Positions 22,566 to 58,519 of a DNA stretch of 64,000 nucleotides are shown piece after piece (positions within the stretch are counted from its first letter, which is position 1; each line of letters begins with the position of its first letter). The notes under the pieces were generated by a model, which worked only from the letters and a program-made list of their open reading frames with translations, was not told the origin of the DNA and did not search any database. Made by a program: the position numbers and the translations under genes. This DNA comes from Hyaloperonospora brassicae (lineage: Eukaryota; Oomycota; Peronosporomycetes; Peronosporales; Peronosporaceae): contig CANTFL010001315.1 of assembly GCA_947650285.1 (NCBI GenBank), forward strand, positions 124,001 through 188,000. The letters run 5' to 3'.

Positions 22566-22955
22566 TGTAACGGGGCACACCCTTGCGTAACTTAACGCAA
22601 GGGATTTGGGTGCCCCGACGGACGTACACGCGGCGAGCGAGGAAGCGTAGATAGGGTAAAAGTAGAACTGTTATATTAATAAAATTAAGTCTTTAAACTA
22701 CTGTCTCTTCGTTTGACTTAATTCAATTATACTAATATAACTGCATGTATGGTGACGTCTCGTCACCACTCATTGCGCGCGTCTTGCGGCGATTGGTGGG
22801 TTGATATCATCACGATATCAACCAATGAACAGACCCTTTGGTCGACCCTTCAATATCACCACTTTGGTGATATTGTTTAAAGAATATCCATCTTATATTC
22901 TTTATTGTCACTTTCCTTAAAGTGACAATTTCATGTAACGGGCTGCCCCGTTACA
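22566..22955 (-). repeat. Element 1, 3' LTR (390 bp)
   Basis: Starts TGTAACGGGG and ends CCCCGTTACA. Nearly identical to the two element 2 LTRs. Five hairpins fill its last 160 bp. Confidence 0.95.
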
Positions 22956-22970
22956 TCACCCCCCCTTAAC
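22956..22970 (-). promoter_or_regulatory. Element 1 polypurine tract
   Basis: On the minus strand GTTAAGGGGGGGTGA abuts the 3' LTR, the expected place for plus-strand priming. The same tract flanks the element 2 LTR at 31857-31872. Confidence 0.85.
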
Positions 22971-23086
22971 TGATAGTCACCGAGTGACTATCGAAAATAT
23001 GGAGGCCACCCGTTGGCCACCTTTGGGACAGGGAGCACTTGTTTGGTCCGTTCCACTCACTTTCCGCTTGACCTCGCATAGTTAAC

Positions 23087-24694
23087 ATGTCTATGCGAGG
23101 TGACTCGAGACCCACACAGCCCGGTGCTGTGCAAGCCTCTGCGGCAGACGATTCGTCGTCTGCCGCCCCTTCTTCGCCTGCAGCAACATGTGCTGCAGGT
23201 GCACGCGGTATCACGCCGCGTGCGCACGATGACCCTGATGTAGAGGTCATCTACTCTGGCGAGTCAGACGTGTCTGACTCGGGCAATGCTCCAGAGGCGT
23301 CTCGCTCACCGGCGACGCCTCAGTATTCGTCAAGACCACTGCCGAACGAACGGACTCGTGATTTGCATCACAGTCTGTTAGGCAGTGATGATGATGATCA
23401 GGGTGGTGAGGAATTCTATTCCTCACCACCGCCGACTCATGCGTCTTCGCACGAGCGTGATGACGATGGCGCGAGCCGTCGTCAATCTGGGAGCCGTGGT
23501 ACCGACAAGGGTACCACTGTGAAGCGTGATGAGTTGAAGCCGTGGCGTTTGCCCGAACAGCTCATCAATAGCCTGTCTCACGAGACAGGCCAACACCATC
23601 GAATACCCTTATTCGATGCAACCGAGCTTCACGGCTTGAGTTCCAGCGCGAAGAACTTTCGCGCTGAAGAAGATTTTTATCTCGATGTCTTTCTTAGACA
23701 TCGATGGTACAACAGCAACCAAAAGCGTGACAAAACATCGCTTTTGGCTGCGTGGAACGCGTTCGTCCAAAACGTAAAGAATTTTGGACGAGAAGGGTGG
23801 CTAAAGAAACTTGAGGCGACACGCCTCAGGTTCGAACGGCGAACGCCAACCGGTGCTAGGTACCTGTTGCATTGTTTATCGAGTGAGGCAGGCATTCCTT
23901 GCCTCACATGGGGAGACCCTTGTGCGAGTTGTGTTGACAACTCGCAGCGTGCACATAGGGATGTGTACTCCCTAAATTCGCCCTGGAAAAGGGCACACAT
24001 CTCGGCTGAGATGCGTGACGCGATTGCAAACTTGCAATCCGTCTACAAGCGCCTAGGGCGCGTGTTTACCGATGGGCCACAGGACTCATCGGATGGGTCT
24101 CGTCATACTGGCGGACGAGACCTTCAACATCCATCAACAGCTGAGAGCGGGGCTCCCAGCTGTTCCAAGAGGGTGGATGCCCCCGCCACTGGACGAGGTA
24201 GCTCGTCCTTGATCCTGAATCGTTACGGTGATTCAAGATACGCTCCACTAGAAAGCGTTGATCACCGTGAGCATCCACCAAAGGATGTGGTGGAGGAGGA
24301 AAGACCTCCTCCAGATGATTCGGTTCACCATCTCGACCCTTACGAGATGGATCGCGCAATCGATGAATTGCGCGATGACTTGAAGCACGAGCGCGACCGG
24401 CGCTACGCTTTGACTGATACCGTGCAAAAGAACCGCAAGGGTCACGAGGCTGATCGGGCGAGGGATCGCGCCGATTATGCCACGGCGCAGCTTCAGGTCG
24501 ATCGGGATGTCCGCTCCCTATTCGGCGAGCTGGCGACAGCTCGCGGGGAGACATCTCGGTTGAATACCGAGGTATCATATCTGCGCGACCAGACGGATCG
24601 TCTGGAGCGCGAACGCAAGAACTTGATGGATGTTCTTGAACGTGGGGGCTATCTTCATCGGAAGAAGAAGGCTCGTACTGACAGTACGACATAA
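23087..24694 (+). CDS. Antisense ORF of gypsy element 1 (intact, 535 aa), unknown function
   Basis: This ORF lies opposite in strand to gag-pol, starting 131 bp inside the 3' LTR. It overlaps the pol chromodomain end antisense for 629 bp (24066-24694). The protein has an Ala/Ser/acidic N-terminus (1-150), a Trp/Cys-containing central domain (about 165-320) with [36 protein letters not shown] and [20 protein letters not shown], and a C-terminal coiled coil (about 420-525) with [19 protein letters not shown] and [20 protein letters not shown] followed by a basic tail ([10 protein letters not shown]). Element 2 has the same ORF with an in-frame 3-bp difference, upstream of the pol overlap where no pol frame would select for it. 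The start codon sits in the 11-nt loop of a perfect 10-bp hairpin (arms 23071-23080 and 23092-23101). No family recognised. Antisense ORFs are known in some plant gypsy lineages, not, to my knowledge, this protein. Confidence 0.75.
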
Positions 24695-27600
24695 GCCTCC
24701 CCACGTAAAACGTAGGATGCGTGCGCATCTTACGTGGCAATTCGAGTGTGTATGCATTGCCCTTGCGATGCAACACTCGAAATGGCCCAATGTATTTCGG
24801 CAGTAGTTTACTACTGCCGACACTAGTGACTGCATGTCCAGGTAAGTTTACCGTATATAGTTTTACTAGGTCGTTGACCTTAAATGAAAGAACATTTGCT
24901 CTTCCATTATTGTCTGCGTTCCGTTTCTGACGGTCCACCGCATTTGCGATGGAGTCCTGAACGAATCGGACTACCGCTTCTCGAGTCAGCAGGAAGTTCT
25001 CTGCTGACTCTTTGTTTTGTCTGGCAGTGCGCTTCGTGCGAACTGCTAAGAGATTGCTCTCTTCTTCAGCGAGGTTGTCTTCTTCCTCGCTGACATAATC
25101 GTTGGCGATGCTGAATATACCAGCATCGCCATCATCATCCGAATCAATAATAGCGTCGTCGCTATTATTGAGATGATCTTCTTCATCGATGTCGACTTGA
25201 TCGACATCGGCATCATACGTGACGACGTTAACGTCGACACGTGATGAGCAAGAGCCAAAACGGTTTTTGCTCGAGCGAGTCCCTCCCCACCTTATCCAAG
25301 AGTCACACTCTAGAAGGGCGGGCACACGTGGATGGCGTTAACCATTCACGTAAAACGGTGTGTGCTGTGTTGAAGCATGCACCGAATTATTGATGGCGAA
25401 TTTCACCATGGGTAGGAATTCGCTCCAACTCGGAAACGAGTGGACATATCCTCGAAGGATCTCATCGAGGACACGGTTCGCACGTTCCGTCTGACCATCT
25501 GTTTCTGGATGGTCAGAAGTGGACATCTTCAATCGTGTTCCGAGAGTACGGAACACGGTTTGCCAAAATGCCGCCGTGAACCGAGGGTCACGGTCGGATA
25601 CGAGTTCACGGGGTAACCCGTGGAGTCTAAAGACCGTGTCTAGAAAGACACGAGCACAACCTTGAGCCTTGATCGACTAAGTTACAGCAGCAAGATGGAC
25701 CATCTTGCTGAATCGGTCAACAAACACAAGAATACCATTATTCTTGTGAGCGTCTTCGGGAAACCCGAAGACAAAGTCCATTGAAACGGACTGCCAGCAC
25801 TCTGTCGGAACAGGCAGAGGCTGAAATGGCGCACGGGATGAAGGACTAGGCTTCACCCGTTGACAAACCTCGCAAGCACGTATGTACTTGCGAACAAACT
25901 GATACTGGCGGGGCCAGTAAAAGTCACGACTGACCGTGAGGTAAGTCTTTTCCCTTCCACGATGGCCGCTTGTTGGGGCATCGTGACACTCGTACATGGT
26001 GCGCAAACGCAAATCATGAAGAGCGGGTACGACGACACGAGGCGTGCGTAATGACGCATGGTCCGTGTAGACAACAAACGGTCTATCTCCCAAGAGATAG
26101 ACGCGAAACTTAGCCAGTGCATAATTCATGGCAAGGAGTTCCTTGTCATGCACTGGGTAATTACGCTCAGCTGCTTGCAGCTGACGCGACTGATAACAGA
26201 TGACGCGCTCCGCGCCATCTGCATCGAACTGCATTAACGCACAGCCGATTGCGAAATCGCTGGCGTCACAGACCACATGAAATGGTCTGTCCTGATCTGC
26301 AATCGCCAAGATCGGCGATTGCATCAAGCTTTGCTTGATACCTTCAAAGGAACGCTGGCACTCAGCGTTCCATGACCACTTGACATTTTTCTTGAGCAAG
26401 CAAGAAAGATGAACAGTCATCTCAGCGTAGTTGCGCGAGTACTTGTGCAAGTACGCCGCTAGACCAAGGAACTTCCTTAGTCCCTTGACATCGACTGGCA
26501 CTGGCCAGTCGGGTATCGCCTTGATCTTTTCGGGATCAGGGCGTACGCCGTGTTTACCCACGATGCACCCAAGAAGTGGTATTTCTCTAGCCGCGAATAT
26601 ACACTTCTTGAGGTTGGAGTACAACTTATACTTGCGCATAAGTTGAAGAACCTGACGAACGTGAGTTCTGTGAACTTCAACGTCCGTCTTTCCGTCCATA
26701 GCCCGGCTATGGACGAACACATCGTCGAATTAACTCGGTGCGAAGTCTCGCACCGGTCTCAACAGATTTGTGACACATCTGTTAAATGTTGCAGGGGCAT
26801 TACTCAGCCCCTGTGGCATCACTAGCCACTCCCACAGCATCCCGCTGGGGGTACTCACTGCCGTGAACGGGACGTCCCGTTCACGCATCAGGATCTGATA
26901 GAATCCATCCATCAGATCCATGGACGAAAAGATGGTACTCTTTGACATACCATCTATGATTACGTCCTTCCTCGGTATCGGCGTCTGAGCCGGTACCGTT
27001 GCAGCATTCAACTTGTTGAATGCGTGCACTATCCGCCACCCTCCTGTGGCCTTTCGGACACAGAAGGTCGGAGAGCTGTGAGGAGATGTTGGTTCCTTCA
27101 CATGGCCCGCTGCTAAGCGATCGGCAAAGAACTCTTCGATCGCTATCACTTGTTCACGAGGCAGTGGCCACTGCTTCATGACACAGTATTTCGAGCCCGG
27201 TTTGAGCTCGATCTCGTGTCGAGTGCCTTTGTCCTTAGGCAACTCGCAAGGTACGGATTCAGGGAAAACATCCCTGAATTCGATCAAATCCTTATACAAA
27301 GGATTTGCCCGAAGTGACTCCCAGGATTGGGACGCGTATCGCTCAATCCGAGTCTTCTCATCGAGGACACTTTCGTCCATCTATGAGCTGCTGAGAACCC
27401 GTTCGTTCTCAGCAAATACTGTTGCCGACCGAATGTCGGTCACATACTCGTCCTCTGTGACGAGTATGCAGATCTGCTTGACTTTGCCACTACGCAGATC
27501 ACGCAAGAACCGTTTCGGTTCTAGCGTTGGCAACTGAGTTATCTCCGAAGTCAACTTCGGAGGCACAATCAGATCAAGCGTATAAGCGCCTACGCTTGAT

Positions 27601-28706
27601 CCGTCATTAACCAAGACGTTCAACGTCTCGGTTTCTTCCTGGGAACTTGCTTCCACAGGTTGCTGAGGGCCTGATCCCTCAGCAAGCAACTCTTGAGGAA
27701 CTCCTTCCTCAAGTACGTGGGGACTCATTCCCTCGACGTCTTCCCACTGTGGCTGTGCAACCACAGTCAGGAACCGATCCTCTACGGTCGACTCTCCAGT
27801 CGACCTAGGATTTTCATGTTGCCCCTTGGGGGTAACAGATTTCTTTCTTCTAAGATACTGCCCGCTAGGCATGCATCCATGTCCCGGTCCACTCGACTTA
27901 TTCGAGTGGTGGACCTTCGGCGCAGCCTGTACTTCTGTACAGCCGCCGGGAGCTTGCTCCACAGTGTAGTGATCAACTACACTGTGATCTTGTGCAGTCG
28001 TGCTAACGACCGTACCGCAAGTGAGGCCATCGCACTCACTCGCAGAACATCCACACGCTTGTGGACGCTCCAAGATGTTCATCAGATGGCCATCTGACGA
28101 ACAAGCGGCAGGCATATTCACGGGTCGATGCTGCCAGCTCACCCTTGGCTCGTACTTTCTGAGCCAAGGTAATCCCAGGATGACATCAAATTTGTCATCC
28201 AGATCTAGTACGATGAAATCATCATCGTACTGTTCGCCCTCTAACGTGTAGTGGATTCCTACTACACGTTTCTCAACGGTTATCGATGCGCCTGTTGCAA
28301 GGCGCACCGTCATCCTTGTGAGGGGAATGTCGCGCTCAACGAACTTGAGCCTACGACCCTCTAGTGACTGGCGACGAACAAAGTTGTCCGACGCCCCACA
28401 GTCTACTAGGGCACGAAGCGACAAGTCATTTGTCGCTTCCAACTTCAAGGTGATGAGCGAAACGTCATCACCAGGTGCAGAGACACACAATGATTGTGTA
28501 TCTGGAGCAACTTTCGTCAAGAGATTTGCAAATTCTCTTGAGGTTGCTGGATGGTAGGGCCCTCCGCCCCTACTGACCCCGACCATTTTTTGATGGTCCT
28601 TCTCGCTGTTGCGGCTTCGCAACAGCGCTGGACCCACGCCCATTGCCCTTTCTGGCGAATGGTCGTCCATTTCGCTCAGTACTGTTTGGTACTGGGCGCG
28701 GAGCAC
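24066..28706 (-). pseudogene. Element 1 pol, inactivated
   Basis: Domains in order on the minus strand: aspartyl protease (LRALVDCGASDNFV, ILGLPWL) near 28.4-28.1 kb; reverse transcriptase (TGGWRIVHAFNKLNAATVPA, MPQGLSNAPATFNRC) near 27.1-26.6 kb; start of RNase H (FHVVCDASDFAIGCALMQFD); integrase zinc finger (HDLRLRTMYECHDAPTSGHR, CEVCQRVK) and catalytic core (HPETDGQTERANRVL); and a C-terminal chromodomain ([28 protein letters not shown]). Breaks: stops at 27381-27383, 26730-26732 (at the tyrosine of the reverse-transcriptase YxDD box), 25677-25679 and 25338-25340; plus a 390-bp in-frame deletion at about 26043 removing the end of RNase H and the region before the integrase finger. Frame +1 relative to gag with 137 nt overlap. 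Confidence 0.93.
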
Positions 28707-29724
28707 TACACTCGTATGCGTAGTGCCCTAACTTCTGACAGCGATTGCACCTCTGCAATCGCTTGTTGATTGTAGAGCGAGGTCTCTCGCTCTCAACATA
28801 ACAGAGGTCCATTGGTTCTGGACCTCCGATCTCTTGTCGTCTCGGTGGACGGTAAGAGTTTGAGCTAGCATGAGCCTGTCTCATGCTAAAGTCTTCCTGT
28901 TCCGCGGCTGATATCGCTTCTTCAAGCGTATTCAGCTCAAGGCGGAACAGGTGGCTCCTGACGGGCCCTTCTGCGAGCCCTTGCATGAACACCGTAATCA
29001 ACGTGTGTTCACGTACTGGGTTAGCAGTTATACTACTCGCAAGGAGTCGTATATGTTGTGCGTAAGCGTGCACATCACGCTTACCCTGCTTGAGTTTCAG
29101 GAGCTCTGAACGAGCCCTGAACTCAGCACGTGGCGGCTCAAACGTTTGTCTGAGCCGGGACTTGAAGTCAGCTAGCAACCTAAACACATGTGGGTCGCTA
29201 CTCTCGAGCCCCAGGGACCAAATTTTGGCACGCCCTGCCAAGTGGGTCTGAGCAAATGTGAGTTTCATTTGCTCATCTTCGACGCGACGAGCCCTTAGGG
29301 CTCTGTCGAGTTCGACAAACCATAGTAACAGGGAGTCCTCCGGGACTCCACTGTACTTGGAGATGTCAACTTTCATGACTTCGGGACGACGCGCATGCGC
29401 CGTCCCGCCCACATCAGCATGGAATTGCGGCTGTCTCAACAGCTCCGTCTGTTGAGCACCGAGTTCTCTCAACTGCTCGGCCTGTTGAGAGCCTTGCTGG
29501 TGAAGCAAGGCTACTTTCTCCCTCTCGAGAGCAAGTTCATTGTGAATGAACTTGGCAATAGCGGCATGTTGTTGGTCTCTGTCTAGAGACTCCAACATGG
29601 CGCTAATGGCGAACTCGCCTACGGTAGAACTCATTCGTTCTACCGCACTCCATTCGATGTCACTCAAATGGGTAAACCCTTCACGCGTGGCGTGAAAGGT
29701 CTCTTCTTCATCCAACATGTTCAT
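28570..29724 (-). CDS. gag: Element 1 gag
   Basis: Intact 384-aa ORF starting MNMLDEEETFHATREGF. It has a capsid-type region (LLLWFVELDRALRARRVEDE, KSRLRQTFEPPRAEFRARSE, YAQHIRLLASS) and a C-terminal zinc knuckle RCNRCQKLGHYAYEC (CCHC), followed by a basic Gly/Arg tail. The start codon lies in a perfect 11-bp hairpin. Nearly identical to the element 2 gag. It forms the virus-like particle and packages the RNA. Confidence 0.93.
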   Translation of the reverse strand: MNMLDEEETFHATREGFTHLSDIEWSAVERMSSTVGEFAISAMLESLDRDQQHAAIAKFIHNELALEREKVALLHQQGSQQAEQLRELGAQQTELLRQPQFHADVGGTAHARRPEVMKVDISKYSGVPEDSLLLWFVELDRALRARRVEDEQMKLTFAQTHLAGRAKIWSLGLESSDPHVFRLLADFKSRLRQTFEPPRAEFRARSELLKLKQGKRDVHAYAQHIRLLASSITANPVREHTLITVFMQGLAEGPVRSHLFRLELNTLEEAISAAEQEDFSMRQAHASSNSYRPPRRQEIGGPEPMDLCYVESERPRSTINKRLQRCNRCQKLGHYAYECSAPRPVPNSTERNGRPFARKGNGRGSSAVAKPQQREGPSKNGRGQ

Positions 29725-29753
29725 GTTGGATGATGTGGTCCTTGGAAGGACTA

Positions 29754-29766
29754 CAAAGTGCTACCA
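29754..29766 (-). promoter_or_regulatory. Element 1 primer binding site
   Basis: On the minus strand, TGGTAGCACTTTG lies two bases after the 5' LTR. It is the complement of a tRNA 3' end reading AAGTGCTACCA. An A1-U72 acceptor pair would fit initiator tRNA-Met; this is inference. Elements 2 (39043-39055) and 3 (51016-51027) share the first 11 bases. Confidence 0.8.
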
Positions 29767-29768
29767 GG

Positions 29769-30156
29769 TGTAACGGGGCACACCCTTGCGTAACTTATCG
29801 CAAGGGTTTCGGTGCCCCGACAGACGTACACGAGGCAAACGAGGAAGCGTAGATATGGGAAAAGTAAAATTGTTATATTAATAAAATTAAGTCTTTTAAC
29901 CACTGTCTCTCTGTTTGACTTAATTCAATTATACTAATGTAATTATATGTATGATGACGTCTCGTCACCACTCATTGCGCGCGTCTTGCGGCGATTGGTG
30001 GGTTGATATCATCACGATATCAACCAATGAACAGACCCTTTGGTCGACCATTCAATATCACCACTTTGGTGATATTGTACAAAGAATATTCAAGTTAATA
30101 TTCTTTATTGTCAAATTGTTTAATGACAATTTCATGTAACGGGCTACCCCGTTACA
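29769..30156 (-). repeat. Element 1, 5' LTR (388 bp)
   Basis: Same family as the LTR at 22566 but with more differences (for example TTATCGCAAGGGTTTCGG near 29797), so it is the most diverged of the four. Confidence 0.95.
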
Positions 30157-31468: not shown

Positions 31469-31856
31469 TGTAACGGGGCACACCCTTGCGTAACTTAACG
31501 CAAGGGATTTGGGTGCCCCGACAGACGTACACGTGGCGAGCGAGGAAGCGTAGGTAGGGTAAAAGTAGAACTGTTATATTAATAAATTAAGTCTTTAAAC
31601 TACTGTCTCTTCGTTTGACTTAATTCAATTATACTAATATAACTGCATGTATGGTGACGTCTCGTCACCACTCATTGCGCGCGTCTTGCGGCGATTGGTG
31701 GGTTGATATCATCACGATATCAACCAATGAACAGACCCTTTGGTCGACCATTCAATATCACCACTTTGGTGATATTGTTTAAAGAATATCCATCTTATAT
31801 TCTTTATTGTCACTTTCCTTAAGTGACAATTTCATGTAACGGGCTGCCCCGTTACA
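31469..31856 (-). repeat. Element 2, 3' LTR (388 bp)
   Basis: TGTAACGGGG to CCCCGTTACA. Perfect hairpins, left arm start to right arm end: 31483-31506 (9 bp), 31653-31669 (7), 31701-31725 (10), 31753-31777 (10), 31781-31805 (9), 31806-31830 (10), 31836-31855 (8). Confidence 0.96.
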
Positions 31857-31987
31857 TCACCCCCCCCTTAACTGATAGTCACCGTGTGACTATCGAAATA
31901 TGGAGGCCACCCGTTGGCCACCATTGGGACAGGGAGCACTTGTTTGGTCCGTTCCACTCACTTTCCGCTTGACCTCGCATAGTTAAC

Positions 31988-33593
31988 ATGTCTATGCGAG
32001 GTGACTCAAGACCCACACAGCCTGGTGCTGTGCAAGCCTCTGCGGCAGACGCTTCGTCGTCTGCCGCCCCTTCTTCGCCTGCAGCAACAGGTGCTGCAGG
32101 TGCACGCGGTATCACGCCGCGTGCGCATGATGACCCCGATGTGGAGGTCATCTACTCTGGCGAGTCAGACGTGTCTGACTCGGGCAATGCTCCAGAGGCG
32201 TCTCGCTCACCGGCGACGCCTCAGTATTCGCCAAGGCCACTGCCGAACGAACGGACTCGTGATTCGCATCACAGTCTGTTAGGCAGTGATGACGATGATC
32301 AGGGTGGTGAGTTCTATTCTTCACCACCGCCGGCTCGTGCGTCTTTGCACGAGCGTGATGACGATGGCGCGAGCCGTCGTCAATCTGGGAGCCGTGGTAC
32401 CGACAAGGGTACCACTGTGAAGCGTGATGAGTTGAAGCCGTGGCGTTTGCCCGAACAACTCATCAATAGCCTGTCTCACGAGACAGGCCAACACCATCGA
32501 ATACCCTTATTCGATGCAACCGAGCTTCACGGCTTGAGTTCCAGCGCGAAGAACTTTCGCGCTGAAGAAGACTTTTATCTCGATGTCTTTCTTAGACATC
32601 GATGGTACAATAGCAACCAAAAGCGTGACAAAACATCGCTTTTGGCTGCGTGGAACGCGTTCGTCCAAAACGTCAAGAATTTTGGACGAGAGGGGTGGCT
32701 CAAGAAACTTGAGGCAACACGCCTCAGGTTCGAACGGCGAACGCCAACCGGTGCTAGGTACTGGTTGCATTGTTTATCTAGTGAGGCAGGCATTCCTTGC
32801 CTCACATGGGGAGACCCTTGTGCGAGTTGTGTTGACAACTCGCAGCGTGCACATAGGGATGTGTACTCCCTAAATTCGCCCTGGAAAAGGGCACACATCT
32901 CGGCTGAGATGCGTGACGCGATTGCAAACTTGCAATCCGTCTACAAGCGCCTAGGGCGCGTGTTTACCGATGGGCCACAGGACTCATCGGATGGGTCTCG
33001 TCATACTGGCGGACGAGACCTTCAACATCCATCAACAGCTGAGAGCGGGGCTCCCAGATGTTCCAAGAGGGTGGATACCCCCTCCACTGGACGAGGTAGC
33101 TCGTCCTTGATCCTGAATCGTCACGGTGATTCAAGATACGCTCCACTAGAAAGCGTTGATCACCGTGAGCATCCACCAAAGGATGTGGTGGAGGAGGAAA
33201 GACCTCCTCCAGATGATTCCGGTTCACCATCTCGACCCTTACGAGATGGATCGCGCAATCGATGAATTGCGCGATGACTTGAAGCACGAGCGCGACCGGC
33301 GCTACGCTTTGACCGACACCGTGCGGAAGAACCGCAAGGGTCACGAGGCTGATCGGGCGAGGGATCGCGCCGATTATGCCACGGCGCAGCTTCAGGTCGA
33401 GCGGGATGTCCGCTCCCTTTTCGGCGAGCTGGCGACAGCTCGCGGAGAGATATCTCGGTTGAGTTCCGAGGTATCATATCTGCGCGACCAGACGGATCGT
33501 CTGGAGCCCGAACGCAAGAACTTGATGGATGTTCTTGAACGTGGGGGCTATCTTCATCGGAAGAAGAAGGCTCGTACTGACAGTACGACATAA
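31988..33593 (+). pseudogene. Antisense ORF of gypsy element 2, frameshifted
   Basis: Homologue of the 535-aa antisense ORF of element 1. The frame is intact from 31988 to about 33220, where one extra C shifts it into a stop at 33265. The coiled-coil end continues in another frame to 33593. The same inserted base lies antisense in pol and shifts its chromodomain frame. Amino acid differences from element 1 are scattered and mostly in the N-terminal and linker parts; the Trp/Cys-rich central domain is almost unchanged. Start codon in a hairpin loop as in element 1. Confidence 0.8.
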
Positions 33594-36500
33594 GCCTCCC
33601 CACGTAAAACGTAGGATGCGTGCGCATCTTACGTGGCAATTCGAGTGTGTATGCATTGCCCTTGCGATGCAACACTAGAAATGGCCCAATGTATTTCGGC
33701 AGTAGTTTACTACTGCCGACACTAGTGACTGCATGTCCAGGTAGGTTTACCGTTGACAGTAGTACTAGGTCATTAACCTTAAATGAAAGAACATTTGCTC
33801 TTCCATTATTGTCTGCGTTCCGTTTCTGACGGTCCACCGCATTTGCGATGGAGTCCTGAACGAAACGGACTACCGCTTCTCGAGTCAGCAGGAAGTTCTC
33901 TGCTGACTCTTTGTTTTGTCTAGCAGTGCGCTTCGTGCGCACTGCTAAGAGATTGCTCTCTTCTTCAGCGAGGTTGTCTTCTTCCTCGCTGGCATAATCG
34001 TTGGCGATGCTGAATATACCAGCATCGCCATCATCATCCGAATCAATAATAGCGTCGTCGCTATTATTGAGATGATCTTCTTCATCGATGTCGACTTGAT
34101 CGACATCGGCATCATACGTGACGACGTTTGCGTCGACACGTGATGAGCAAGAGCCAAAACGGTTTTTGCTCGAGCGAGTCCCTCCCCCCTTATCCAAGAG
34201 TCACACTCTAGAAGGGTGGGCACACGTGGATGGCGTAGGCCATTCACGTAAAACGGTGTGTGCTGTGTTGAAGCATGCACCGAATTATTGATGGCGAATT
34301 CCACCATGGGTAGGAATTCGCTCCAACTCGGAAACGAGTGGACATATCCTCGAAGAATCTCTTCGAGGACACGGTTCGCACGTTCCGTCTGACCATCTGT
34401 TTCTGGATGGTCAGAAGTGGACATCTTCAATCGTGTTCCGAGAGTACGGAACACGGTTTGCCAAAATGCCGCCGTGAACCGAGGGTCACGGTCGGATACG
34501 AGTTCACGGGGTAACCCGTGGAGTCTAAAGACCGTGTCTAGAAAGACACGAGCACAACCTTGAGCCTTGATTGACTCAGGGACAGCAGCAAGATGGACCA
34601 TCTTGCTGAATCGGTCAACAAACACAAGAATACCATTATTCTTGTGAGCGTCTTCGGGAAACCCGAAGACAAAGTCCATTGAAACGGACTGCCAGCACTC
34701 TGTCGGAACAGGCAGAGGCTGCAATGGCGCACGGGATGAAGGACTAGGCTTCACCCGTTGACAAACTTCGCAAGCACGGATGTACTTGCGAACAAACTGA
34801 TACTGGCGGGGCCAGTAAAAGTCGCGACTTACCGTGAGGTAAGTCTTTTCCCTTCCACGATGGCCGCTTGTTGGGGCATCGTGACACTCATACATGATGC
34901 GCAATCGCAAATCATGATGAGCGGGTACGACGACACGAGGCGTGTCGTCGGCAACAGCTGTATAGTACAGCAATCCGTTGCGTGTACTATACCGATCCGA
35001 TGAGGATCGATACAAAGCCGGTAAATCCCTCATGGATTTACTGGATGAATTCACCAGATGATCCATCAATCGCAGAAGATCCTTATCTTCTGCGTATGCC
35101 TTTCGTACGTCGTCAAGTAAGCTTGACGACGGGACACTGACTGACAGTGTCGCTACAGTGTGCTTATCCGCACTGGTAAATTGTTCGACCGGCTCAAAAT
35201 CGGGCGGGCGCGAAAGCGCATCAGCGACGACATTGAGTCGTCCCGGTTTATATTCCACGGAGAAGTTATACTCCGCGAAGAAAGACAGCCACCTCGCCAT
35301 TCTTTGCGAGAGGTGCGGGCTGTTTACGGCCGTGCGTAATGACGCATGGTCCGTGTAGACAACAAACGGTCTATCTCCCAAGAGATAGACGCGAAACTTA
35401 GCCAGTGCGTATTTCATGGCAAGGAGTTCCTTGTCATGCACTGGGTAATTACGCTCAGCTGCTTGCAGCTGACGCGACTGATAACAGATGACGCGCTCCG
35501 CGCCATCTGCATCGAACTGCATTAACGCACAGCCGATTGCGAAATCGCTGGCGTCACAGACCACATGAAATGGTCTGTCCTGATCTGCAATCGCCAAGAT
35601 CGGCGATTGCATCAAGCTTTGCTTGATACCTTCAAAGGAACGCTGGCACTCAGCGTTCCATGACCACTTGACATTTTTCTTGAGCAAGCAAGAAAGATGA
35701 ACAGTCATCTCAGCGTAGTTGCGCGAGTACTTGTGCAAGTACGCCGCTAGACCAAGGAACTTCCTTAGTCCCTTGACATCGACTGGCACTGGCCAGTCGG
35801 GTGATCGCCTTGATCTTTTCGGGATCAGGGCGTACGCCGTGTTTACCCACGATGCACCCAAGAAGTGGTATTTCTCTAGCCGCGAATATACACTTCTTGA
35901 GGTTGGCGTACAACTTATGCTTGCGCATAAGTTGAAGAACCTGACGAACGTGAGTTCTGTGAACTTCAACGTCCGTCTTCCCGTCCATAGCCCGGCTATG
36001 GACGAACACATCGTCGAAGTAACTCGGTGCGAAGTCTCGCACCGGTCTCAACAGATTTGTTACACATCTGTTGAATGTTGCAGGGGCATTACTCAGCCCC
36101 TGTGGCATCACTAGCCACTCCCACAGCATCCCGCTGGGGGTACTCACTGCCGTGAACGGGACGTCCCGTTCACGCATCAGGATCTGATAGAATCCATCCA
36201 TCAGATCCATGGACGAAAAGATGGTACTCTTTGACATACCATCTATGATTACGTCCTTCCTCGGTATCGGCGTCTGAGCCGGTACCGTTGCAGCATTCAA
36301 CTTGTTGAATGCGTGCACTATCCGCCACCCTCCTGTGGCCTTTCGCACACAGAAGGTCGGAGAGCTGTGAGGGGATGTTGATTCCCTCACATGGCCCGCT
36401 GCTAAGCGATCGGCAAAGAACTTGTCGATCGCTATCACTTGTTCACGAGGCAGTGGCCACTGCTTCATGACACAGTATTTCGAGCCCGGTTTGAGCTCGA

Positions 36501-37995
36501 TCTCGTGTCGAGTGCCTTTGTCCTTAGGCAACTCGCAAGGTACGGATTCAGGGAAAACATCCCTGAATTCGATCAAATCCTTATACAAAGGATTTGCCTG
36601 AAGTGACTCCCAGGATTGGGACGCGTATCGCTCAATCCGAGTCTTCTCATCGAGGACACTTTCGTCCATCGATGAGCTGCTGAGAACCCGTTCGTTCTCA
36701 GCAAATACTGTTGCCGACCGAATGTCGGTCACATACTCGTCCTCTGTGACGAGTACGCAGATCTGCTTGACTTTGCCACTACGCAGATCACGCAAGAACC
36801 GTTTCGGTTCTAGCGTTGGCAACTGAGTTATCTCCGAAGTCAACTTCGGAGGCACAATCAGATCAAGCGTATAAGCGCCTACGCTTGATCCGTCATTAAC
36901 CAAGACGTTCAACGTCTCGGTTTCTTCCTGGGAACTTGCTTCCACAGGTTGCTGAGGGCCTGATCCCTCAGCAAGCAACTCTTGAGGAACTCCTTCCTCA
37001 AGTACGTGGGGACTTATTCCCTCGACGTCTTCCCACTGTGGCTGTGCAACCACAGTCAGGAACCGATCCTCTACGGTCGACTCTCCAGTCGACCTAGGAT
37101 TTTCATGTTGCCCCTTGGGGGTAACAGATTTCTTTCTTCTAAGATACTGCCCGCTAGGCATGCATCCATGTCCCGGTCCACTCGACTTATTCGAGTGGTG
37201 GACCTTCGGCGCAGCCTGTACTTCTGTACAGCCGCCGGGAGCTTGCTCCACAGTGTAGTGATCAACTACACTGTGATCTTGTGCAGTCGTGCTAACGACC
37301 GTACCGCAAGTGAGGCCATCGCACTCACTCGCAGAACATCCACACGCTTGTGGACGCTCCAAGATGTTCATCAGATGGCCATCTGATGAACAAGCAGCAG
37401 GCATCTTCACGGATCGATGCTGCCAGCTCACCCTTGGCTCGTATTTTCTGAGCCAAGGTAATCCCAGGATGACATCAAATTTGTCATCCAGATCTAGTAC
37501 GATGAAATCATCATCGTACTGCTCGCCCTCTAACGTGTAGTGGATTCCTACTACACGTTTCTCAACGGTTATCGATGCGCCTGTTGCAAGGCGCACCGTC
37601 ATCCTTGTGAGGGGAATGTCGCGCTCAACGAACTTGAGCCTACGACCCTCTAGTGACTGGCGACGAACAAAGTTGTTCGACGCCCCACAGTCTACTAGGG
37701 CACGAAGCGACAAGTCATTTGTCGCTTCCAACTTCAAGGTGATGAGCGAAACGTCATCACCAGGTGCAGAGACACACAATGATTGTGTATCTGGAGCAAC
37801 TTTCGTCAAGAGATTTGCAAATTCTCTTGAGGTTGCTGGATGGTAGGGCCCTCCGCCCCTACTGACCCCGACCATTTTTTGATGGTCCTTCTCGCTGTTG
37901 CGGCTTCGCAACAGCGCTGGACCCACGCCCATTGCCCTTTCTGGCGAATGGTCGTCCATTTCGCTCAGTACTGTTTGGTACTGGGCGCGGAGCAC
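32964..37995 (-). pseudogene. Element 2 pol, three single-base frameshifts
   Basis: Protease (VDCGASNNFVRR), reverse transcriptase with its YFDD box intact, RNase H (VVCDASDFAIGCALM, with the YTDH motif), integrase zinc finger (HDLRLRIMYECHDAPTSGHR, CEVCQRVK), catalytic core (SMDFVFGFPED, SDRDPRFTAAFW, HPETDGQTERANRVLEE) and chromodomain ([24 protein letters not shown]). Breaks, judged against element 1: an extra G at about 35803 just before RNase H; a missing base in a C-run at about 34185 after the integrase; an extra C at about 33220 ahead of the chromodomain. No stop interrupts the 761 codons from the pol start to the first shift. Frame +1 to gag, 137 nt overlap. Confidence 0.94.
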
Positions 37996-39013
37996 TACAC
38001 TCGTATGCGTAGTGCCCTAACTTCTGACAGCGATTGCACCTCTGCAATCGCTTGTTGCTTGTAGAGCGAGGTCTCTCGCTCTCAACATAACAGAGGTCCA
38101 TTGGTTCTGGACCTCCGATCTCTTGTCGTCTCGGTGGACGGTAAGAGTTTGAGCTAGCATGAGCCTGTCTCATGCTAAAGTCTTCCTGTTCCGCGGCTGA
38201 TATCGCTTCTTCAAGCGTATTCAGCTCAAGGCGGAACAGGTGGCTCCTGACGGGCCCTTCTGCGAGCCCTTGCATGAACACCGTAATCAACGTGTGTTCA
38301 TGAACTGGGTTTGCAGTTATACTACTCGCAAGGAGTCGTATATGTTGTGCGTAAGCGTGCACATCACGCTTACCCTGCTTGAGTTTCAGGAGCTCTGAAC
38401 GAGCCCTGAACTCAGCACGTGGCGGCTCAAACGTTTGTCTGAGCCGGGACTTGAAGTCAGTTAGCGACCTAAACACGTTTGGGTCGCTACTCTCGAGTCC
38501 CAGGGACCAAGTTTTGGCACGCCCTGCCAAGTGGGTCTGAGCAAATGTGAGTTTCATTTGCTCATCTTCGACGCGACGAGCCCTTAGGGCTCTGTCGAGT
38601 TCGACAAACCATAGTAACAGGGAGTCCTCCGGGACTCCACTGTACTTGGAGATGTCGACTTTCATCACTTCGGGACGACGCGCATGCGCCGTCCCGCCCA
38701 CAGCAGCACGGAATTGCTGCTGTCTCAACAGCTCCGTCTGTTGAGCACCGAGTTCTCTCAACTGCTCGGCCTGTTGAGAGCCTTGCTGGTGAAGCAAGGC
38801 TACTTTCTCCCTCTCGAGAGCAAGTTCATTGTGAATGAACTTGGCGATAGCAGCATGTTGTTGGTCTCTGTCTAGAGACTCCAACATGGTGCTAATGGCG
38901 AACTCGCCTACGGTAGAACTCATTCGTTCTACCGCACTCCATTCGATGTCACTCAAATGGGTAAACCCTTCACGCGTGGCGTGAAAGGTCTCTTCTTCAT
39001 CCAACATGTTCAT
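37859..39013 (-). CDS. gag: Element 2 gag
   Basis: Intact 384-aa gag with the CCHC knuckle RCNRCQKLGHYAYEC. The start codon is inside the 11-bp hairpin with arms 38998-39008 and 39011-39021. It differs from the element 1 gag at about a dozen positions. Confidence 0.94.
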   Translation of the reverse strand: MNMLDEEETFHATREGFTHLSDIEWSAVERMSSTVGEFAISTMLESLDRDQQHAAIAKFIHNELALEREKVALLHQQGSQQAEQLRELGAQQTELLRQQQFRAAVGGTAHARRPEVMKVDISKYSGVPEDSLLLWFVELDRALRARRVEDEQMKLTFAQTHLAGRAKTWSLGLESSDPNVFRSLTDFKSRLRQTFEPPRAEFRARSELLKLKQGKRDVHAYAQHIRLLASSITANPVHEHTLITVFMQGLAEGPVRSHLFRLELNTLEEAISAAEQEDFSMRQAHASSNSYRPPRRQEIGGPEPMDLCYVESERPRSTSNKRLQRCNRCQKLGHYAYECSAPRPVPNSTERNGRPFARKGNGRGSSAVAKPQQREGPSKNGRGQ

Positions 39014-39057
39014 GTTGGATGATGTGGTCCTTGGAAGGACTACAAAGTGCTACCAGG

Positions 39058-39445
39058 TGTAACGGGGCACACCCTTGCGTAACTTAACGCAAGGGATTTG
39101 GGTGCCCCGACAGACGTACACGCGGCGAGCGAGGAAGCGTAGATAGGGTAAAAGTAGAACTGTTATATTAATAAATTAAATCTTTAAACTACTGTCTCTT
39201 CGTTTGACTTAATTCAATTATACTAATATAACTGCATGTATGGTGACGTCTCGTCACCACTCATTGCGCGCGTCTTGCGGCGATTGGTGGGTTGATATCA
39301 TCACGATATCAACCAATGAACAGACCCTTTGGTCGACCCTTCAATATCACCACTTTGGTGATATTGTTTAAAGAATATCCATCTTATATTCTTTATTGTC
39401 ACTTTCCTTAAGTGACAATATCATGTAACGGGCTGCCCCGTTACA
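39058..39445 (-). repeat. Element 2, 5' LTR (388 bp)
   Basis: Followed on the minus strand by the primer binding site (39055-39043) and bounded on the outside by the GCTCA duplication. Confidence 0.96.
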
Positions 39446-43257: not shown

Positions 43258-43530
43258 ATGGCATCGCCATATAACGAGTCTCGAACTCTTTCCTCCTACA
43301 TCGACTTCGATGAAGATGTGGACTATGGTAGCGATATCAATCTCCATGGAGATGAAGAAACATTCTATAACCCATACGTGCCTAACGTAAGACCTCTTTC
43401 AGCACTCAATCCGCTCGTCGATCGTGGTAAAACCAACGCGCCAACGGAGCAGAATCATGCAACATTTGCAGGTGAAAAAATCATATATAACCCGTTCGAA
43501 GAGCAACAAGAGCTGATTTCTCGGCGATAG
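43258..43530 (+). pseudogene. Start of an antisense ORF in element 3
   Basis: Begins MASPYNESRTLSSYIDFDED 109 bp from the 3' LTR, on the strand opposite pol. It has an acidic, tyrosine-rich N-terminus, then stops after 90 residues. No sequence match to the antisense ORF of elements 1 and 2 that I can see by eye, but the same place, strand and acidic start. It probably continued further before decay. Confidence 0.5.
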
Positions 43531-48400: not shown

Positions 48401-48730
48401 TGACATCATAATAATTCTTTGGTAAAGGCCACTGCCGTGTGACGCAGTATTTAGTTGCAGGAATCTTATGACATACACTTCTATCGGGAGGTAAGACAGA
48501 CGGTGAATAGTGACACACCAAGTCTTAAAATCCTTTGATACAGATTGAAACGGATTAAGAGGATCCGAAACGATCGCGGATTCGCTACGCGCATTATGTG
48601 TCACTTTTTTGTCCTCAAGAATGGATTCATCTAACAACGAAAATGATTTTATCTCACCATCACGTAGGATGACCGCTAATTTGGATAAATCTCTTGCCTG
48701 CATGGCTTGGCTGAATTCACCATCAGACAT
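45429..48730 (-). pseudogene. Element 3 pol remnants
   Basis: Fragments in order from right to left: reverse transcriptase (IPDQTPVPRKGIFQKNM, SALDSVDGYYQLLMRESDIP, MLWEWIVMLQGLSDAP) at about 48.5-48.0 kb; RNase H (FSVVCDASDFDIGIALL) at about 47.5 kb; integrase finger and core traces at about 46.9-46.3 kb (TDGQTDRMYRI, NAVHASTGFSPYM); integrase end (VFDVGLLKPYRDPSHVN) at about 45.85 kb; and a chromodomain (VEKILKRSRRHAQNQYLMKW followed by RGCP) at about 45.5 kb. Frameshifts and stops throughout. Confidence 0.85.
45555..45755 (+). pseudogene. Coiled-coil fragment antisense to the element 3 chromodomain
   Basis: A plus-strand frame reads LLDMSGLRETLGKTQSALDS, then MQACVQALELGQARVRVLE, then a stop. 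It shows heptad-like leucines and an imperfect ELGQAR duplication. It lies antisense to the integrase-chromodomain end of pol, exactly where the antisense ORF of elements 1 and 2 ends in a coiled coil. This supports a common layout, though the intervening region is too decayed to link it to 43258. Confidence 0.45.
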
Positions 48731-48999
48731 TTTGTCTAGTTTAAAGAGCTTATTTAAGGACGGAACAGTCTCTAGACTAATGTTGTTCTAAACATGGCCA
48801 GTCAACCTATTGACAAGTGTATATAGTGTATAATCACTATTACCACTTCGTAACGTCCCGGAAGTTTGGCGCTTAACAGTTGCCACCCGACGCCGGGATT
48901 GTTTCCTCAAAGAAAAATTTTGCCTCCGAAAATCCGGGAAGAAGGGTCCATAAGTTTGCTATTTATCTTAGCACGCTCTATGCGACAACTCATTCCTTG

Positions 49000-50856
49000 A
49001 ACGAAATCTGGTGGAGAGTTACAAAACTCGAACACTTCAACCAGTGGGTTTACTCGTACCACTTCACGGGCATGATGTTTGCCTAGCCCTGCATGCTTCG
49101 GCTTTTCGCCAACAATTTTTACTAACGACCTTAATTAAATTGCATTTGCGGCCGCCCTCATTTGGGGAAATTCCAGGTGCCACCCCACTCGAATCAGAAG
49201 AGTTACATTCTTGATGACGCGGTCCTAGTCCAACCATGCCTGCAGCATGCAGTGACTCATTATCAGAACGAGCATCAATCAACGGAGTACGACTTTCTTC
49301 ATATGAGGTGAAAGAACTCCGCTCAATTTACATGTCATTGACATTAGAGTTAATTAACTCGGACATACCAAAGCACATTGACATTATCCGTCAACGGCTC
49401 GCGCTATTAGTGCTTTTATTGTCAAGCGATGGTGGGTTCATGAATCTCCAAAACTTCATAGAAGAGTGCGCGTTGCGCCTAAGGTCATAGACCTTCAATC
49501 AATCGATGACTCTTGGCGTTCAATTCAGGTCATACCTAGGATGAGATCGTATATCGAGTTCAAATCAAGGACGCGACAGCGTTTGTGCTGTCCTAGTCCA
49601 AAAACTGCACGCCTAAGTTTAACGCAACTTTAAACGCATTGACGCGACTACCAGTCGCTAAAAGATCGGTAATTGGGTCAACCTCATGCGCTTTGAGAGC
49701 TTCAGCGTATCACTGACTTCTCTCAAGGGAACGACGTCGAGCATGATTACATGATGCTCCGGAATCGATTTATATCGACAAATGATTCTCTAAGCCTTTT
49801 AGGGTTACCTAGGCGGATAAGAAGCCAATATGATATCCACGCTCTGTTTGACGGGCACAGAGCTTTTTGAAGATAAGCCCAGCTCCACTGTACCTCGTAG
49901 AGGAGTAACATGACCTAGTTCTACCCCAGTAGGGCGTTACGCGTCTACCGGATATCGACGTTTCCCCGTGCCATACCAGATTTCTGGTTGTGGCCGGGCT
50001 TATGACACATAGAAGTCTATCTCAGCTTGCGCAAAGGACAAGCAGGACGCAAATATGTATTGCTTCTTCCTTGTAACACCGATTCAATTGATGTTGTTGC
50101 TCTACAACCTGCAGCTCATCTTCACCTTCATTCTCTCCGTTGCTAAGATCTATCTGTTCAGGCTTATAATTAGCCGAGCTGTTTTTCGAGGTTGACCTCC
50201 CCAAGCATTTCTTGAACCCGTTTCATCCAAGTCTGGTTGACTTTAATTTGTGCTTTGCATTCTGAGCAATGATCACGGCCTCTCCAAATTTAGAGGAATA
50301 AACCCGAAAGACTTCATTTCTGACTACGCCAGCTCGGAGACCTTCCATAAACACAATGACGTGAAATATCTCGGGGAGATGCTCGGACTGTATATCATCC
50401 ATCAGAGTTCTCAGCTCTTGTACATAGTCCGTTAGCTAGTTCTTACCGTTACAGGCAGACAAGAAGGGTGGCGCACACGATAAGCCTGGTTGGGCGGCGA
50501 GAAAACACGCAAAAGGTCTAGCTTGAGCAATTCCCATGTGATAAACCCCAATTCAACAGACGTTTTGCACGTCAAATCCCCCTCTCTAGCTCTCCCATCG
50601 AACGTAAAGCTATCCAGCGAGAAACGCTGGTGTTCAAGTGATATTAGGCCAGATCTCATGGCCATCTCGATCCTACGGTTCCAGAGGGTGAGATTTCCAT
50701 CTCGTTCCCGGAGTAGAATTTAATATCTACGCTGAGGTAATAAGGCTCAGCCTCTTCATCTGGCAATGGTACAAAGCGTGTTGGACAGCCGACTCTAGTT
50801 GGTTCTGAACCTGCCCTAAAATGGCCGATACTACCTGAAGGCGTCGACATGTGCAT
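49000..50856 (-). pseudogene. Element 3 gag remnants
   Basis: Minus-strand frames between the pol debris and the primer binding site carry gag-like pieces (PDEEAEPYYLSVDIKFYSGN near 50.75 kb; a NRCYK fragment perhaps from the zinc knuckle near 50.1 kb). Stops are frequent. Placement by position more than by sequence. Confidence 0.5.
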
Positions 50857-51029
50857 TTACCAAATCGGGACCTTGCGCAACAAGAATATTCTTCTTTTTT
50901 TAACTTACGGACGCGGTCAGCTTATTAAGAGCGGCTTTCTGGGCCTCAATGGAGGGGGTGGATTGTTCTATCCTTAGTTAGGATCAATTTTAAAGACTAA
51001 GGCGTAGATTGAATACAAGTGCTACCAAG

Positions 51030-51510
51030 TGTAGCGGATCGATATAGCTTCTTAATTGTGAGGAATCCTTTAACGCTCTACGAACAACTTCGGTTTCAAG
51101 AACCCGACTCAGAGAGTCAACAAGCTTGAGAAGTTTACGGGCCCTGTTCCAGGTAATTATTGATTCAAAGAATCACAGTATAGAGTGCCCAAGAGAAGCT
51201 ACCTTTACAGGCGTTGCTAAACTCTTAACGATCTAAGACGCCTCGTGAGGCACGTGTCTGAACAGATCAAAAGGGGAGCTGAGCTTTATTTCGGTTTATC
51301 TAACAGACATCCTCAGACGAACGTACTTAGCCTATACTCTAATGTTATAAATAATTACCTCCTAAAAGATCTCGTAATTCAATGGCTGACATACGTCAGC
51401 CCTCGACGACTGATATGGTAATCTAGTATCATTATAAATTATACTCCGTCGCTTGTGTACCACACATTTATGTACCCTGTTACACCCACACCTACACCCA
51501 CACCTGTTGT
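51030..51510 (-). repeat. Element 3, 5' LTR (about 480 bp)
   Basis: Near-identical to 42667-43149 up to a CA-rich expansion at about 51481-51505, after which the match is lost. Confidence 0.88.
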
Positions 51511-57364: not shown

Positions 57365-57834
57365 CAAGTAACGGGGCACGTTCTTGCTCAGATAACTGAG
57401 CAAGGCCTTGTATTGATAACAATACAAGGATGAGTACACCCGACGTCACGTACACGTGGCGTGAAAAAGCGCGACCAAGACAATACAGAACCCGAAATCT
57501 CTGTCTTGAGGGAACAGTAGAACTGTTATTTAATCCAGTTATTTTCTTACTAAATCATCGTTCGTCTTAATCCAACTATATTAAACTACTGTCTCTTACG
57601 TGGGTCTTCTGTCCACCACCCATTGCGCGCGTCCGGCAGCGATTGGTGGTTAAATTGGTTGATGTACACGGTACATCAATCAAGAAGTGGACCCCTCCAC
57701 GGATATTACCGTGAGAGGTAATATTCCGACAAAATCGCTTTTCTCGAGTGATGTTGATTGAATATTATCAAAGTATATAATATTCAAAATTGGTACTTTT
57801 GTACCAATTTTTACGTAACAGGCTCACCCCGTTA
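57365..57834. repeat. Solo LTR of a gypsy family related to elements 1 and 2
   Basis: A 470-bp unit with the family ends (GTAACGGGGCAC ... CACCCCGTTA), no internal region, flanked by GAATG on both sides (57360-57364 and 57835-57839), a likely 5-bp target duplication. It carries hairpins at 57383-57404, 57406-57429, 57659-57679, 57703-57724, 57758-57787 and 57786-57811 in the same order as the LTRs of elements 1 and 2 but with different stem sequences. It arose by LTR-LTR recombination. Confidence 0.85.
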
Positions 57835-58519
57835 GAATGTACGTCATATAAGTGCCGAGGTAGCTACAATAAATATAATGTGAGGTGAGCTCGCGCTTTC
57901 CGATTGAGATCTTACCTGAGCGGCATTGCTTCCACGGGAAGAGCAAAGACAAGTTGGTCGTTGAGGTGGCAAAGAGTAGTGCTGATCGTTGGTTTCCCGC
58001 TACCTTTGCCTTGCATCGTGAGATTGTTTCTGGTGGCTCTTGACGCTATCGGTCTATCCACCCATATAATGCTTGATACATTCCGTGCTTGGGACACGTG
58101 CAGCTCGTGATGTATCAAAAAATGGGTCTGACGCATTGCTCATGACCGTGCGAGCTGAAGCCAGCTGTAGAAAGAAAGTTTGGATATCAATGCATTCTAT
58201 CCATGCTGCGAATGGCGAGCCACACGTCAGGTCTTTTACCATCACAAGTTGCAACTAGCCGGTCAATGCACGTTGGTTGGCATACGTGTGGTACTACCCA
58301 TTTAGCGTTACGTCGCTCCAGAACCTGTATTTTACATTCGCACGATATCCAGTTGCTCTATTTTCGGCGCAAAAGCCAGGCCGATCCCTAACGGGACTGG
58401 ACAGAAGAGCTTCAATACTTTCTTAGCAACGGCGTATCGCACGTCGCCGGTGGTCGCTCGTAGGTCTCCGTCCGAGCAACGGACATACGCACATATCTAC
58501 ATATACAACAACGAGCTGC
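57835..58519. other. Intergenic region upstream of POLR1G
   Basis: Return to gene-block composition. Presumed promoter of the downstream gene. Short frames only. Confidence 0.45.

What the first reader, a model, noticed from the sequence alone, without database searches (positions are those of the whole stretch)
57365..57834. LTR hairpins keep their order but covary in sequence between two LTR families
Compare the element 2 LTR (31469-31856) with the solo LTR. Right after the shared GTAACGGGGCAC start: CCCTTGCGT/ACGCAAGGG (31483-31506) versus CTTGCTCAG/CTGAGCAAG (57383-57404). Next: GGTTGATATC/GATATCAACC (31701-31725) versus TTGATGTAC/GTACATCAA (57659-57679). Then CAATATCACC/GGTGATATTG (31753-31777) versus ATATTACC/GGTAATAT (57703-57724). 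Then AAAGAATAT/ATATTCTTT (31781-31805) versus an 11-bp AT stem (57758-57787). Then ATTGTCACTT/AAGTGACAAT (31806-31830) versus AAAATTGGTAC/GTACCAATTTT (57786-57811). Both arms changed together while pairing and order stayed. Compensatory change at homologous positions is the classic sign that the fold, not the sequence, is under selection. The solo LTR has one extra hairpin (57406-57429).
Basis: seen in the sequence. Interest (0 to 1): 0.9.

Follow-up and report, generated by a model that had tools for sequence, protein, structure and literature searches.

The report
Retrotransposon built of perfect hairpins throughout
A family of jumping genes in what looks like a downy-mildew genome is packed from end to end, protein-coding parts included, with short perfect hairpins whose pairing appears to be kept by selection while the letters change; the two repeats first noticed are just its outer edge.

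Summary
The hairpins are real: all 11 named pairs of arms match perfectly. In an alignment of 28 LTRs, three variable hairpins keep one register across four LTR groups, with 90 two-sided changes against 36 in shuffles.

The LTRs are only the edge. Elements 1 and 2 hold about 192 perfect hairpins in 18 kb against about 4 expected. Coding frames of element 2 hold 11-31 each against under 1 after synonymous shuffling. Folding-energy excess is 46.6%; the highest viral value quoted in PMC7642675 is 23.4%. In the pieces sampled, the trait marks one Ty3/gypsy clade.

Across 24 young copies, variants shared by two or more copies nearly avoid stems (2 in 1,180 sites; 88 in 3,694 elsewhere), while single-copy variants hit stems at 0.6 of the rate elsewhere. 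I read this as selection on pairing during replication. No two-sided change was seen in these copies. In coding stems G·U is not favoured over A·C.

Best reading: an extreme, probably strand-symmetric form of genome-scale ordered structure. Its function is inferred.

The parts
57367..57836 (-). Solo LTR of group B (sense on minus strand), flanks ATGCA/ATGTA
   Evidence: relatives at about 90%
57383..57404 (.). Hairpin, 9 bp, loop 4; extra hairpin of group B near the LTR 3' end
57406..57429 (.). Hairpin, 10 bp, loop 4; aligns with 31483-31506
57659..57679 (.). Hairpin S4, 9 bp; same register as 31701-31725
57703..57724 (.). Hairpin, 8 bp; extra, no counterpart in element 2 LTR
57730..57756 (.). 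Decayed counterpart of S3 (31753-31777); 9-bp stem in copy L003
57758..57787 (.). Hairpin S2, 11 bp; same register as 31781-31805
57786..57811 (.). Hairpin S1, 11 bp; same slot as 31806-31830, register differs
31469..39445 (-). Element 2, Ty3/gypsy, 7,977 bp, flanks GCTCA on both sides, 105 perfect hairpins of stem >=8
31469..31856 (-). 3' LTR of element 2
39058..39445 (-). 5' LTR of element 2
31701..31725 (.). Hairpin S4, 10 bp
31753..31777 (.). Hairpin S3, 11 bp
31780..31806 (.). Hairpin S2, 10 bp
31806..31830 (.). Hairpin S1, 10 bp
31834..31857 (.). Hairpin of the LTR tip, TGTAACGGG/CCCGTTACA plus one flanking pair; 1,804 exact pattern matches in the genome
31483..31506 (.). Hairpin near LTR 3' end, 9 bp
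37859..39013 (-). gag frame
   Evidence: with hairpin excess
35710..37995 (-). protease-RT frame
33945..36011 (-). RNase H-integrase frame
33160..34197 (-). frame with Tf2-like SH3 domain
31988..33265 (+). Antisense frame, 425 aa, hairpin-dense, no Pfam match
22566..30156 (-). Element 1, same clade, hairpin-dense, two unlike LTRs

Best explanation
The LTR hairpins are the edge of a whole-element architecture. A clade of Ty3/gypsy LTR retrotransposons in an oomycete (probably a downy mildew) has evolved so that, in element 2, about 37% of the sequence, LTRs and coding frames alike, lies in short local stem-loops: stems mostly of 8-10 bp, loops mostly of 3-7 nt, commonest total length 23 nt. Shown here: great excess over chance; restriction to one clade among the pieces sampled; compensatory change at homologous LTR hairpins; depletion of shared variants in stems of young copies. 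Inferred: the hairpins keep the element's nucleic acid compactly folded in each replication cycle, and selection acts on the amount and perfection of local folding more than on particular hairpins, because positions turn over between distant families; constraint ends after insertion. Since Watson-Crick pairs are kept in coding stems and G·U is not favoured over A·C there, the fold probably matters on both polarities (genomic RNA plus antisense transcript, or cDNA). [quoted passage not shown] compact packaging is the closest alternative.
For: Excess: 192 hairpins in the nine bins of 22-40 kb against 4.0 in shuffles (5 shuffles per bin). Coding: 15, 31, 26, 11 and 20 hairpins in five partly overlapping frames against means of 0.4-0.8 after synonymous-codon shuffling (30 shuffles each, maximum 3). 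Mostly local: excess at spacers of about 2-13 nt, peak 4-5. RNA folding z-scores -5.4 to -8.3 in five pieces and +0.29 in one hairpin-poor control. Clade: 5 of 19 fetched integrase pieces are hairpin-rich and with element 2 lie on one side of a branch at 100/100. Covariation; in 10 hairpins shared by C14 and C769 coding frames, 67 pairs are the same, 8 changed on both sides, 4 on one. Selection: shared variants 2 in 1,180 stem sites against 88 in 3,694 others; a shifted stem mask gives mean 21.8, minimum 7, 0 of 4,795 shifts as low. 15 of 23 young copies have 0 differences from L025 in 1,180 stem bases and 3-25 in about 3,690 others. Loops vary as spacers do (9 shared variants in 402 sites, 79 in 3,293). 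Stems are not mutational cold spots: in 7 copies of the C14 family, whose variants are nearly all single, there are 11 in 562 stem sites and 52 in 3,723 others. Folding-energy excess 46.6% sense, 47.7% antisense.
Against: No function was tested. Stems defined as those of any copy give 8 shared variants in 1,214 stem sites against 82 in 3,660 (p = 0.0002 against sites), and the shared/single contrast is then not significant (p = 0.105). Single-copy variants are also fewer in stems (20 in 1,180 against 101 in 3,694), and 5 of the 20 lie close together in one stem; 5 of the 11 stem variants in C14 likewise. The test rests on one family of related copies; C14 had only one shared variant. G·U is not preferred: one-mismatch stems of element 2 are 2 G·U, 6 A·C, 6 other and of element 1 4, 6, 4; shared stem variants 14 G·U, 16 A·C. 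Simple sense-RNA selection would predict G·U tolerance. Conversely, G·U cells exceed A·C cells in LTR groups A, TAG and E (9:1, 26:9, 20:13) though not in B (15:25), which speaks for RNA and against strand symmetry if it holds (rows are related; many lie at loop-closing pairs). Hairpin positions are barely shared between family A and C14 (3 of 55 against 1.0 expected, maximum 5). Stem codons of family A are less conserved in protein (44.6% against 57.2% to C14, 45.6% against 53.7% to C769). C14 and C769 have a folding-energy excess (13.4%, 10.1%) little above that of the hairpin-poor third element (8.1%). Small extra excesses of inverted repeats occur at spacers 20-24 (11 against 2.0) and 50-54 (6 against 1.8).
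Confidence: 0.6

Rival explanations
1. Mutational origin: template switching during reverse transcription or DNA replication copies one arm onto the other, making and repairing perfect hairpins without any benefit.
For: Coding stems are Watson-Crick perfect with no G·U preference; whole stems differ between families; stem codons of family A are less conserved; the mechanism is published (PMC8794818, abstract and opening text seen).
Against: If one-arm mutations were corrected, about half should become two-arm changes; the 23 young copies compared with L025 show 0. Over 647 pairs in 33 copies there is 1 shared two-arm state among 40 shared stem variants and 5 among 214 single ones. The excess was found in one clade only, while the hairpin-poor gypsy copies also use reverse transcription.
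Confidence: 0.2
2. Dispersed packaging signals: many hairpins along the genomic RNA are bound by Gag/nucleocapsid and drive compaction into particles.
For: Regular size, presence along the whole element, depletion of shared variants in stems.
Against: No repeated loop motif among the tetraloops of three elements; a sense-RNA role should tolerate G·U, which is not preferred in coding stems.
Confidence: 0.12
3. Palindromic sites for a DNA-binding protein, or cruciforms in double-stranded DNA.
For: No strand preference in coding stems or folding energy.
Against: Arms differ from hairpin to hairpin, spacers range over about 2-13 nt, and loops vary as freely as spacers.
Confidence: 0.04
4. LTR-only RNA signals: the LTR fold serves transcription, polyadenylation or strand transfer.
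For: Covariation in LTR hairpins; the nearly invariant terminal hairpin TGTAACGGG/CCCGTTACA.
Against: gag, pol and the antisense frame are hairpin-dense as well.
Confidence: 0.04

Closest known systems
[quoted passage not shown]
   Same: Several hundred consecutive stem-loops across the genome; paired sites less diverse; pairings poorly conserved in position between relatives; predicted duplexes reported as mostly >8 bp and never exceeding 11, close to the size here (mostly 8-10, a few 11-12)
   Different: The carrier is an LTR retrotransposon; folding-energy excess is 46.6% in element 2 against 15% for SARS-CoV-2 and 23.4% as the highest quoted (their shuffling scheme differs); it is equal on both strands; G·U is not favoured in coding stems
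Ty3/gypsy LTR retrotransposons of oomycetes
   Same: gag, protease, RT, RNase H, integrase and Tf2-like SH3 domains; relatives among the 120 listed of 1,346 protein matches in Peronospora, Phytophthora and Globisporangium
   Different: 14 of 19 integrase pieces sampled from this genome lack the hairpins
Template-switch hairpins (Monttinen and Loytynoja, PMC8794818; abstract and opening text seen)
   Same: Perfect reverse-complement arms
   Different: Two-arm steps were absent in young copies and rare in the wider set
Plant LTR elements with antisense frames (recalled, no call)
   Same: Extra frame antisense to pol near the 3' LTR
   Different: This protein has no Pfam match and no confident fold

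Membership tests
Ty3/gypsy LTR retrotransposon | LTR pair, target-site duplication, gag-PR-RT-RH-IN order | tested here: met
   LTRs; GCTCA on both flanks read
GORS | folding energy well beyond shuffles across the genome, coding included | tested here: met
   22 windows of element 2: mean 46.6%, minimum 29.5%
GORS | reduced diversity at paired sites | tested here: met
   one family; the shared/single contrast depends on how stems are defined
GORS | pairings turn over between relatives | tested here: met
   A vs C14 3 of 55 against 1.0 (maximum 5); C14 vs C769 9 of 38 against 0.5
GORS | positive-strand RNA virus as carrier | tested here: not met
   the carrier is a retrotransposon, so I say it works like GORS, not that it is a member
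GORS | the structure forms in the RNA and shields it | not testable with these tools
   no probing or small-RNA data
Template-switch hairpins | both arms replaced in one step | tested here: not met
   0 in 23 young copies against L025; 1 shared state of 40 in 33 copies
Conserved sense-RNA secondary structure | G·U accepted where A·C is not | tested here: inconclusive
   coding: 14 G·U vs 16 A·C shared variants, 17 vs 15 at outer stem flanks of element 2; LTR cells favour G·U in three of four groups
Conserved LTR secondary structure | covariation beyond shuffled and slid controls | tested here: met

The most novel reading that the evidence does not exclude
A retrotransposon lineage evolves under a second, strand-symmetric code: its sequence, coding parts included, must be locally self-complementary in Watson-Crick terms about every 75 nt, so that its transcripts of both polarities and any small RNA cut from a hairpin (about 23 nt) fold on themselves and escape RNA silencing.
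Probability: 0.25. Interest if true: 0.93.

Novelty: new variant of a known kind. Interest (0 to 1): 0.82.

Why it matters
Whole-genome ordered structure is discussed for RNA viruses, where its purpose is unsettled. An LTR retrotransposon with about twice the highest folding-energy excess quoted in PMC7642675, in a genome that also holds hairpin-poor gypsy elements as matched controls, offers a natural comparison: same host, same kind of replication, with and without the structure. The high copy number (1,804 exact LTR tips) would let selection on pairing be measured from copies alone.

Tried and rejected
Sense-strand RNA structure by G·U tolerance: looked for in one-mismatch stems, stem flanks and shared variants, not found. 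In the LTR table G·U cells exceed A·C cells in groups A, TAG and E but not B; rows are related, so I count it neither way, and it is listed under evidence against.

Editing of single-stranded DNA: the variant spectrum of young copies is not one-sided (G>A 42, C>T 34, T>C 33, A>G 24). Codon-phase preference (wobble paired with wobble): no consistent pattern. Loop motif: none seen. Relatives in viral contigs: 2 stretches matched a pattern, none confirmed. Fold of the antisense protein: mean pLDDT 45.6, not searched further.

Replaced or dropped: a first copy alignment mixed orientations and was replaced. LTRs: 31 were aligned first; L077 (nested LTR), L082 and L086 were dropped, 28 kept. L001 (the window itself), L006 (at a contig end) and the near-identical L009-L016 were not put in. 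Integrase pieces: 19 fetched, chosen by me for variety, of 150 listed matches. Young copies: L023-L046, 24 of the 30 loci that cut out of its 65 listed matches; L017-L022 were treated as older.

Print searches: (open-licence PubMed Central only). No title or abstract start in the listings spoke of a hairpin-dense LTR retrotransposon. Only four papers were opened: PMC5348765, PMC7642675 and PMC3950689 (passages), PMC8794818 (abstract and opening text).

Full report
Observation. Element 2, whose LTR was compared, is a Ty3/gypsy element on the minus strand. The solo LTR belongs to a group whose 39 other full-length listed copies are 88-91% identical to it (a capped list); those listed for the element 2 LTR are 99% identical apart from one partial match at 89% (capped).

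LTR covariation. The terminal hairpin has 1,804 exact places in the genome. I fetched 20 LTRs by it, added those of the window and of group B, and kept 28 of 31. The terminal hairpin and three variable ones (S2, S3, S4) share one register in groups A, TAG, E and B, though not every copy keeps every stem. On these 39 pairs, 90 cells show a change on both sides against 36.4 +/- 6.4 after shuffling, 13 pairs have such a change against 8.5 (3 of 500 shuffles reach it), and 90.6% of cells pair against 28-46% when slid. Column pair 196-202 is mostly C-G in A and TAG and A-T in B; 104-127 is mostly T-A in A and TAG and C-G in E and B. The terminal hairpin scarcely varies and says nothing about covariation.

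The larger pattern. Perfect hairpins (stem >=8, loop 3-14) in 2-kb bins: 192 in the nine bins that hold elements 1 and 2 (shuffles 4.0), 5 in the bin of the solo LTR, and 0 or 1 in each of the 22 other bins, including those of the third LTR element at 42.6-51.3 kb. Element 2 has 105; hairpins of stem >=7 cover 37% of it. Its sense frames hold 15, 31, 26 and 11 and the antisense frame 20 (frames overlap, so some are counted twice), against 0.4-0.8 after shuffling synonymous codons. Inverted repeats are in strong excess at spacers of about 2-13 nt only, with small excesses at 20-24 and 50-54. Stems are mostly 8-10 bp; 11 of 154 hairpins of stem >=6 reach 11 or 12. Five pieces fold with z-scores of -5.4 to -8.3, a hairpin-poor control with +0.29.

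Distribution. Of 19 integrase pieces from this genome, five hold 7-14 hairpins per 1.1 kb and 14 hold 0-1. The five plus element 2 lie on one side of a branch at 100/100 (midpoint root, three long rows among the others). They are 55-97% identical to element 2 in the compared protein. With stems >=7, hairpin centres coincide between C14 and C769 in 9 of 38 cases (0.5 expected, maximum 4) but hardly between A and C14 or C769 (3 of 55 each, 1.0 and 0.65 expected). In the 10 hairpins shared by C14 and C769, 67 pairs are the same, 8 changed on both sides and 4 on one; one keeps the peptide HPTFYVG while two paired wobble bases change together.

Selection or mutation. Among 24 young copies of family A, variants shared by two or more copies (mostly older than the insertions) fall in stems 2 times and elsewhere 88 times; single-copy variants (mostly later) fall 20 and 101 times over 1,180 and 3,694 sites (Fisher p = 0.0005). 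A shifted stem mask never gives 2 or fewer in 4,795 shifts. Loops behave as spacers. With stems taken from any copy the shared count is 8 in 1,214 against 82 in 3,660: still depleted against sites (p = 0.0002), but the shared/single contrast is not significant (p = 0.105). In the burst family C14 (7 copies, stems >=7) single variants are 11 in 562 stem sites and 52 in 3,723 others, 5 of the 11 in one stem, so stems are not cold spots. Across 33 copies shared stem variants are depleted more weakly (40 in 1,294 columns against 214 in 3,637, p = 5e-5) and single ones are not (p = 0.20). An old degraded copy keeps 45 hairpins in 8.3 kb, against 105 in 8.0 kb in element 2. Template-switch correction should leave two-arm changes; none were seen in young copies and few in the wider set.

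Which molecule. If sense RNA were the only target, G·U should be accepted. In coding stems it is not preferred: one-mismatch stems, stem flanks, shared variants (14 against 16); and folding-energy excess is equal on both strands (46.6% and 47.7%). In the LTRs G·U cells exceed A·C cells in three of four groups. I infer that both polarities matter, or that the constraint acts on DNA, but this is the least settled step.

Protein cost. Stem codons of family A are less conserved than others against C14 (44.6% and 57.2%) and C769 (45.6% and 53.7%); the four other comparisons are not significant at 0.05. Either hairpins arise where the protein is free, or they change it.

Comparison. The closest known thing is GORS of RNA viruses: consecutive stem-loops, reduced diversity at paired sites, poor positional conservation (PMC7642675, passages seen), predicted duplexes of limited length and weaker innate sensing (PMC3950689, passages seen). 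Quoted folding-energy excess: about 15% for SARS-CoV-2, 7.5-10.7% for HCV, 23.4% as the highest. Element 2 reaches 46.6% with dinucleotide shuffles, 12 per non-overlapping 350-base window, which is not their exact scheme. C14 and C769 reach 13.4% and 10.1%, the hairpin-poor third element 8.1%, two other stretches of the window 0.7% and -2.9%, the old group B copy 30.0%. So the extreme value belongs to family A and B, not to the whole clade.

Limits. One genome; DNA of relatives in other species was out of reach; the organism is inferred from protein matches (Hyaloperonospora brassicae 80% over 59% of the antisense frame; Peronospora effusa 83% over 71% of the integrase frame). What the hairpins do is inference.

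Noticed in passing
window 31988-33265 (+): 425-aa frame antisense to pol near the 3' LTR; 22 relatives at 30-85% identity, among them Hyaloperonospora brassicae and Peronospora matthiolae; no Pfam family. Frames of 457-505 aa lie at the same place in the C14, C769 and C284 copies, but BLASTP finds no match between A and those.
   Followed up: partly
window 22566-30156: Element 1 has two unlike LTRs: the 3' one is nearly that of element 2, the 5' one has another tip (GTAG) and many differences, suggesting a mosaic or recombined element.
   Followed up: no
window 31469-39445: pol of element 2 lies in several frames, while many listed copies elsewhere have a single open frame of 1,339 codons there.
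   Followed up: no
LTR ends, e.g. window 31834-31857: The LTR tip is a perfect hairpin (TGTAACGGG/CCCGTTACA), and it is also an inverted repeat of the other LTR end; 1,804 exact matches in the genome.
   Followed up: partly
window 42664-51326: A third repeat pair, taken as an LTR element, without the hairpins yet with a folding-energy excess of 8.1%.
   Followed up: no
L047 236-487: Old group-B LTR with a partial duplication of an S1 arm beside the hairpin.
   Followed up: no
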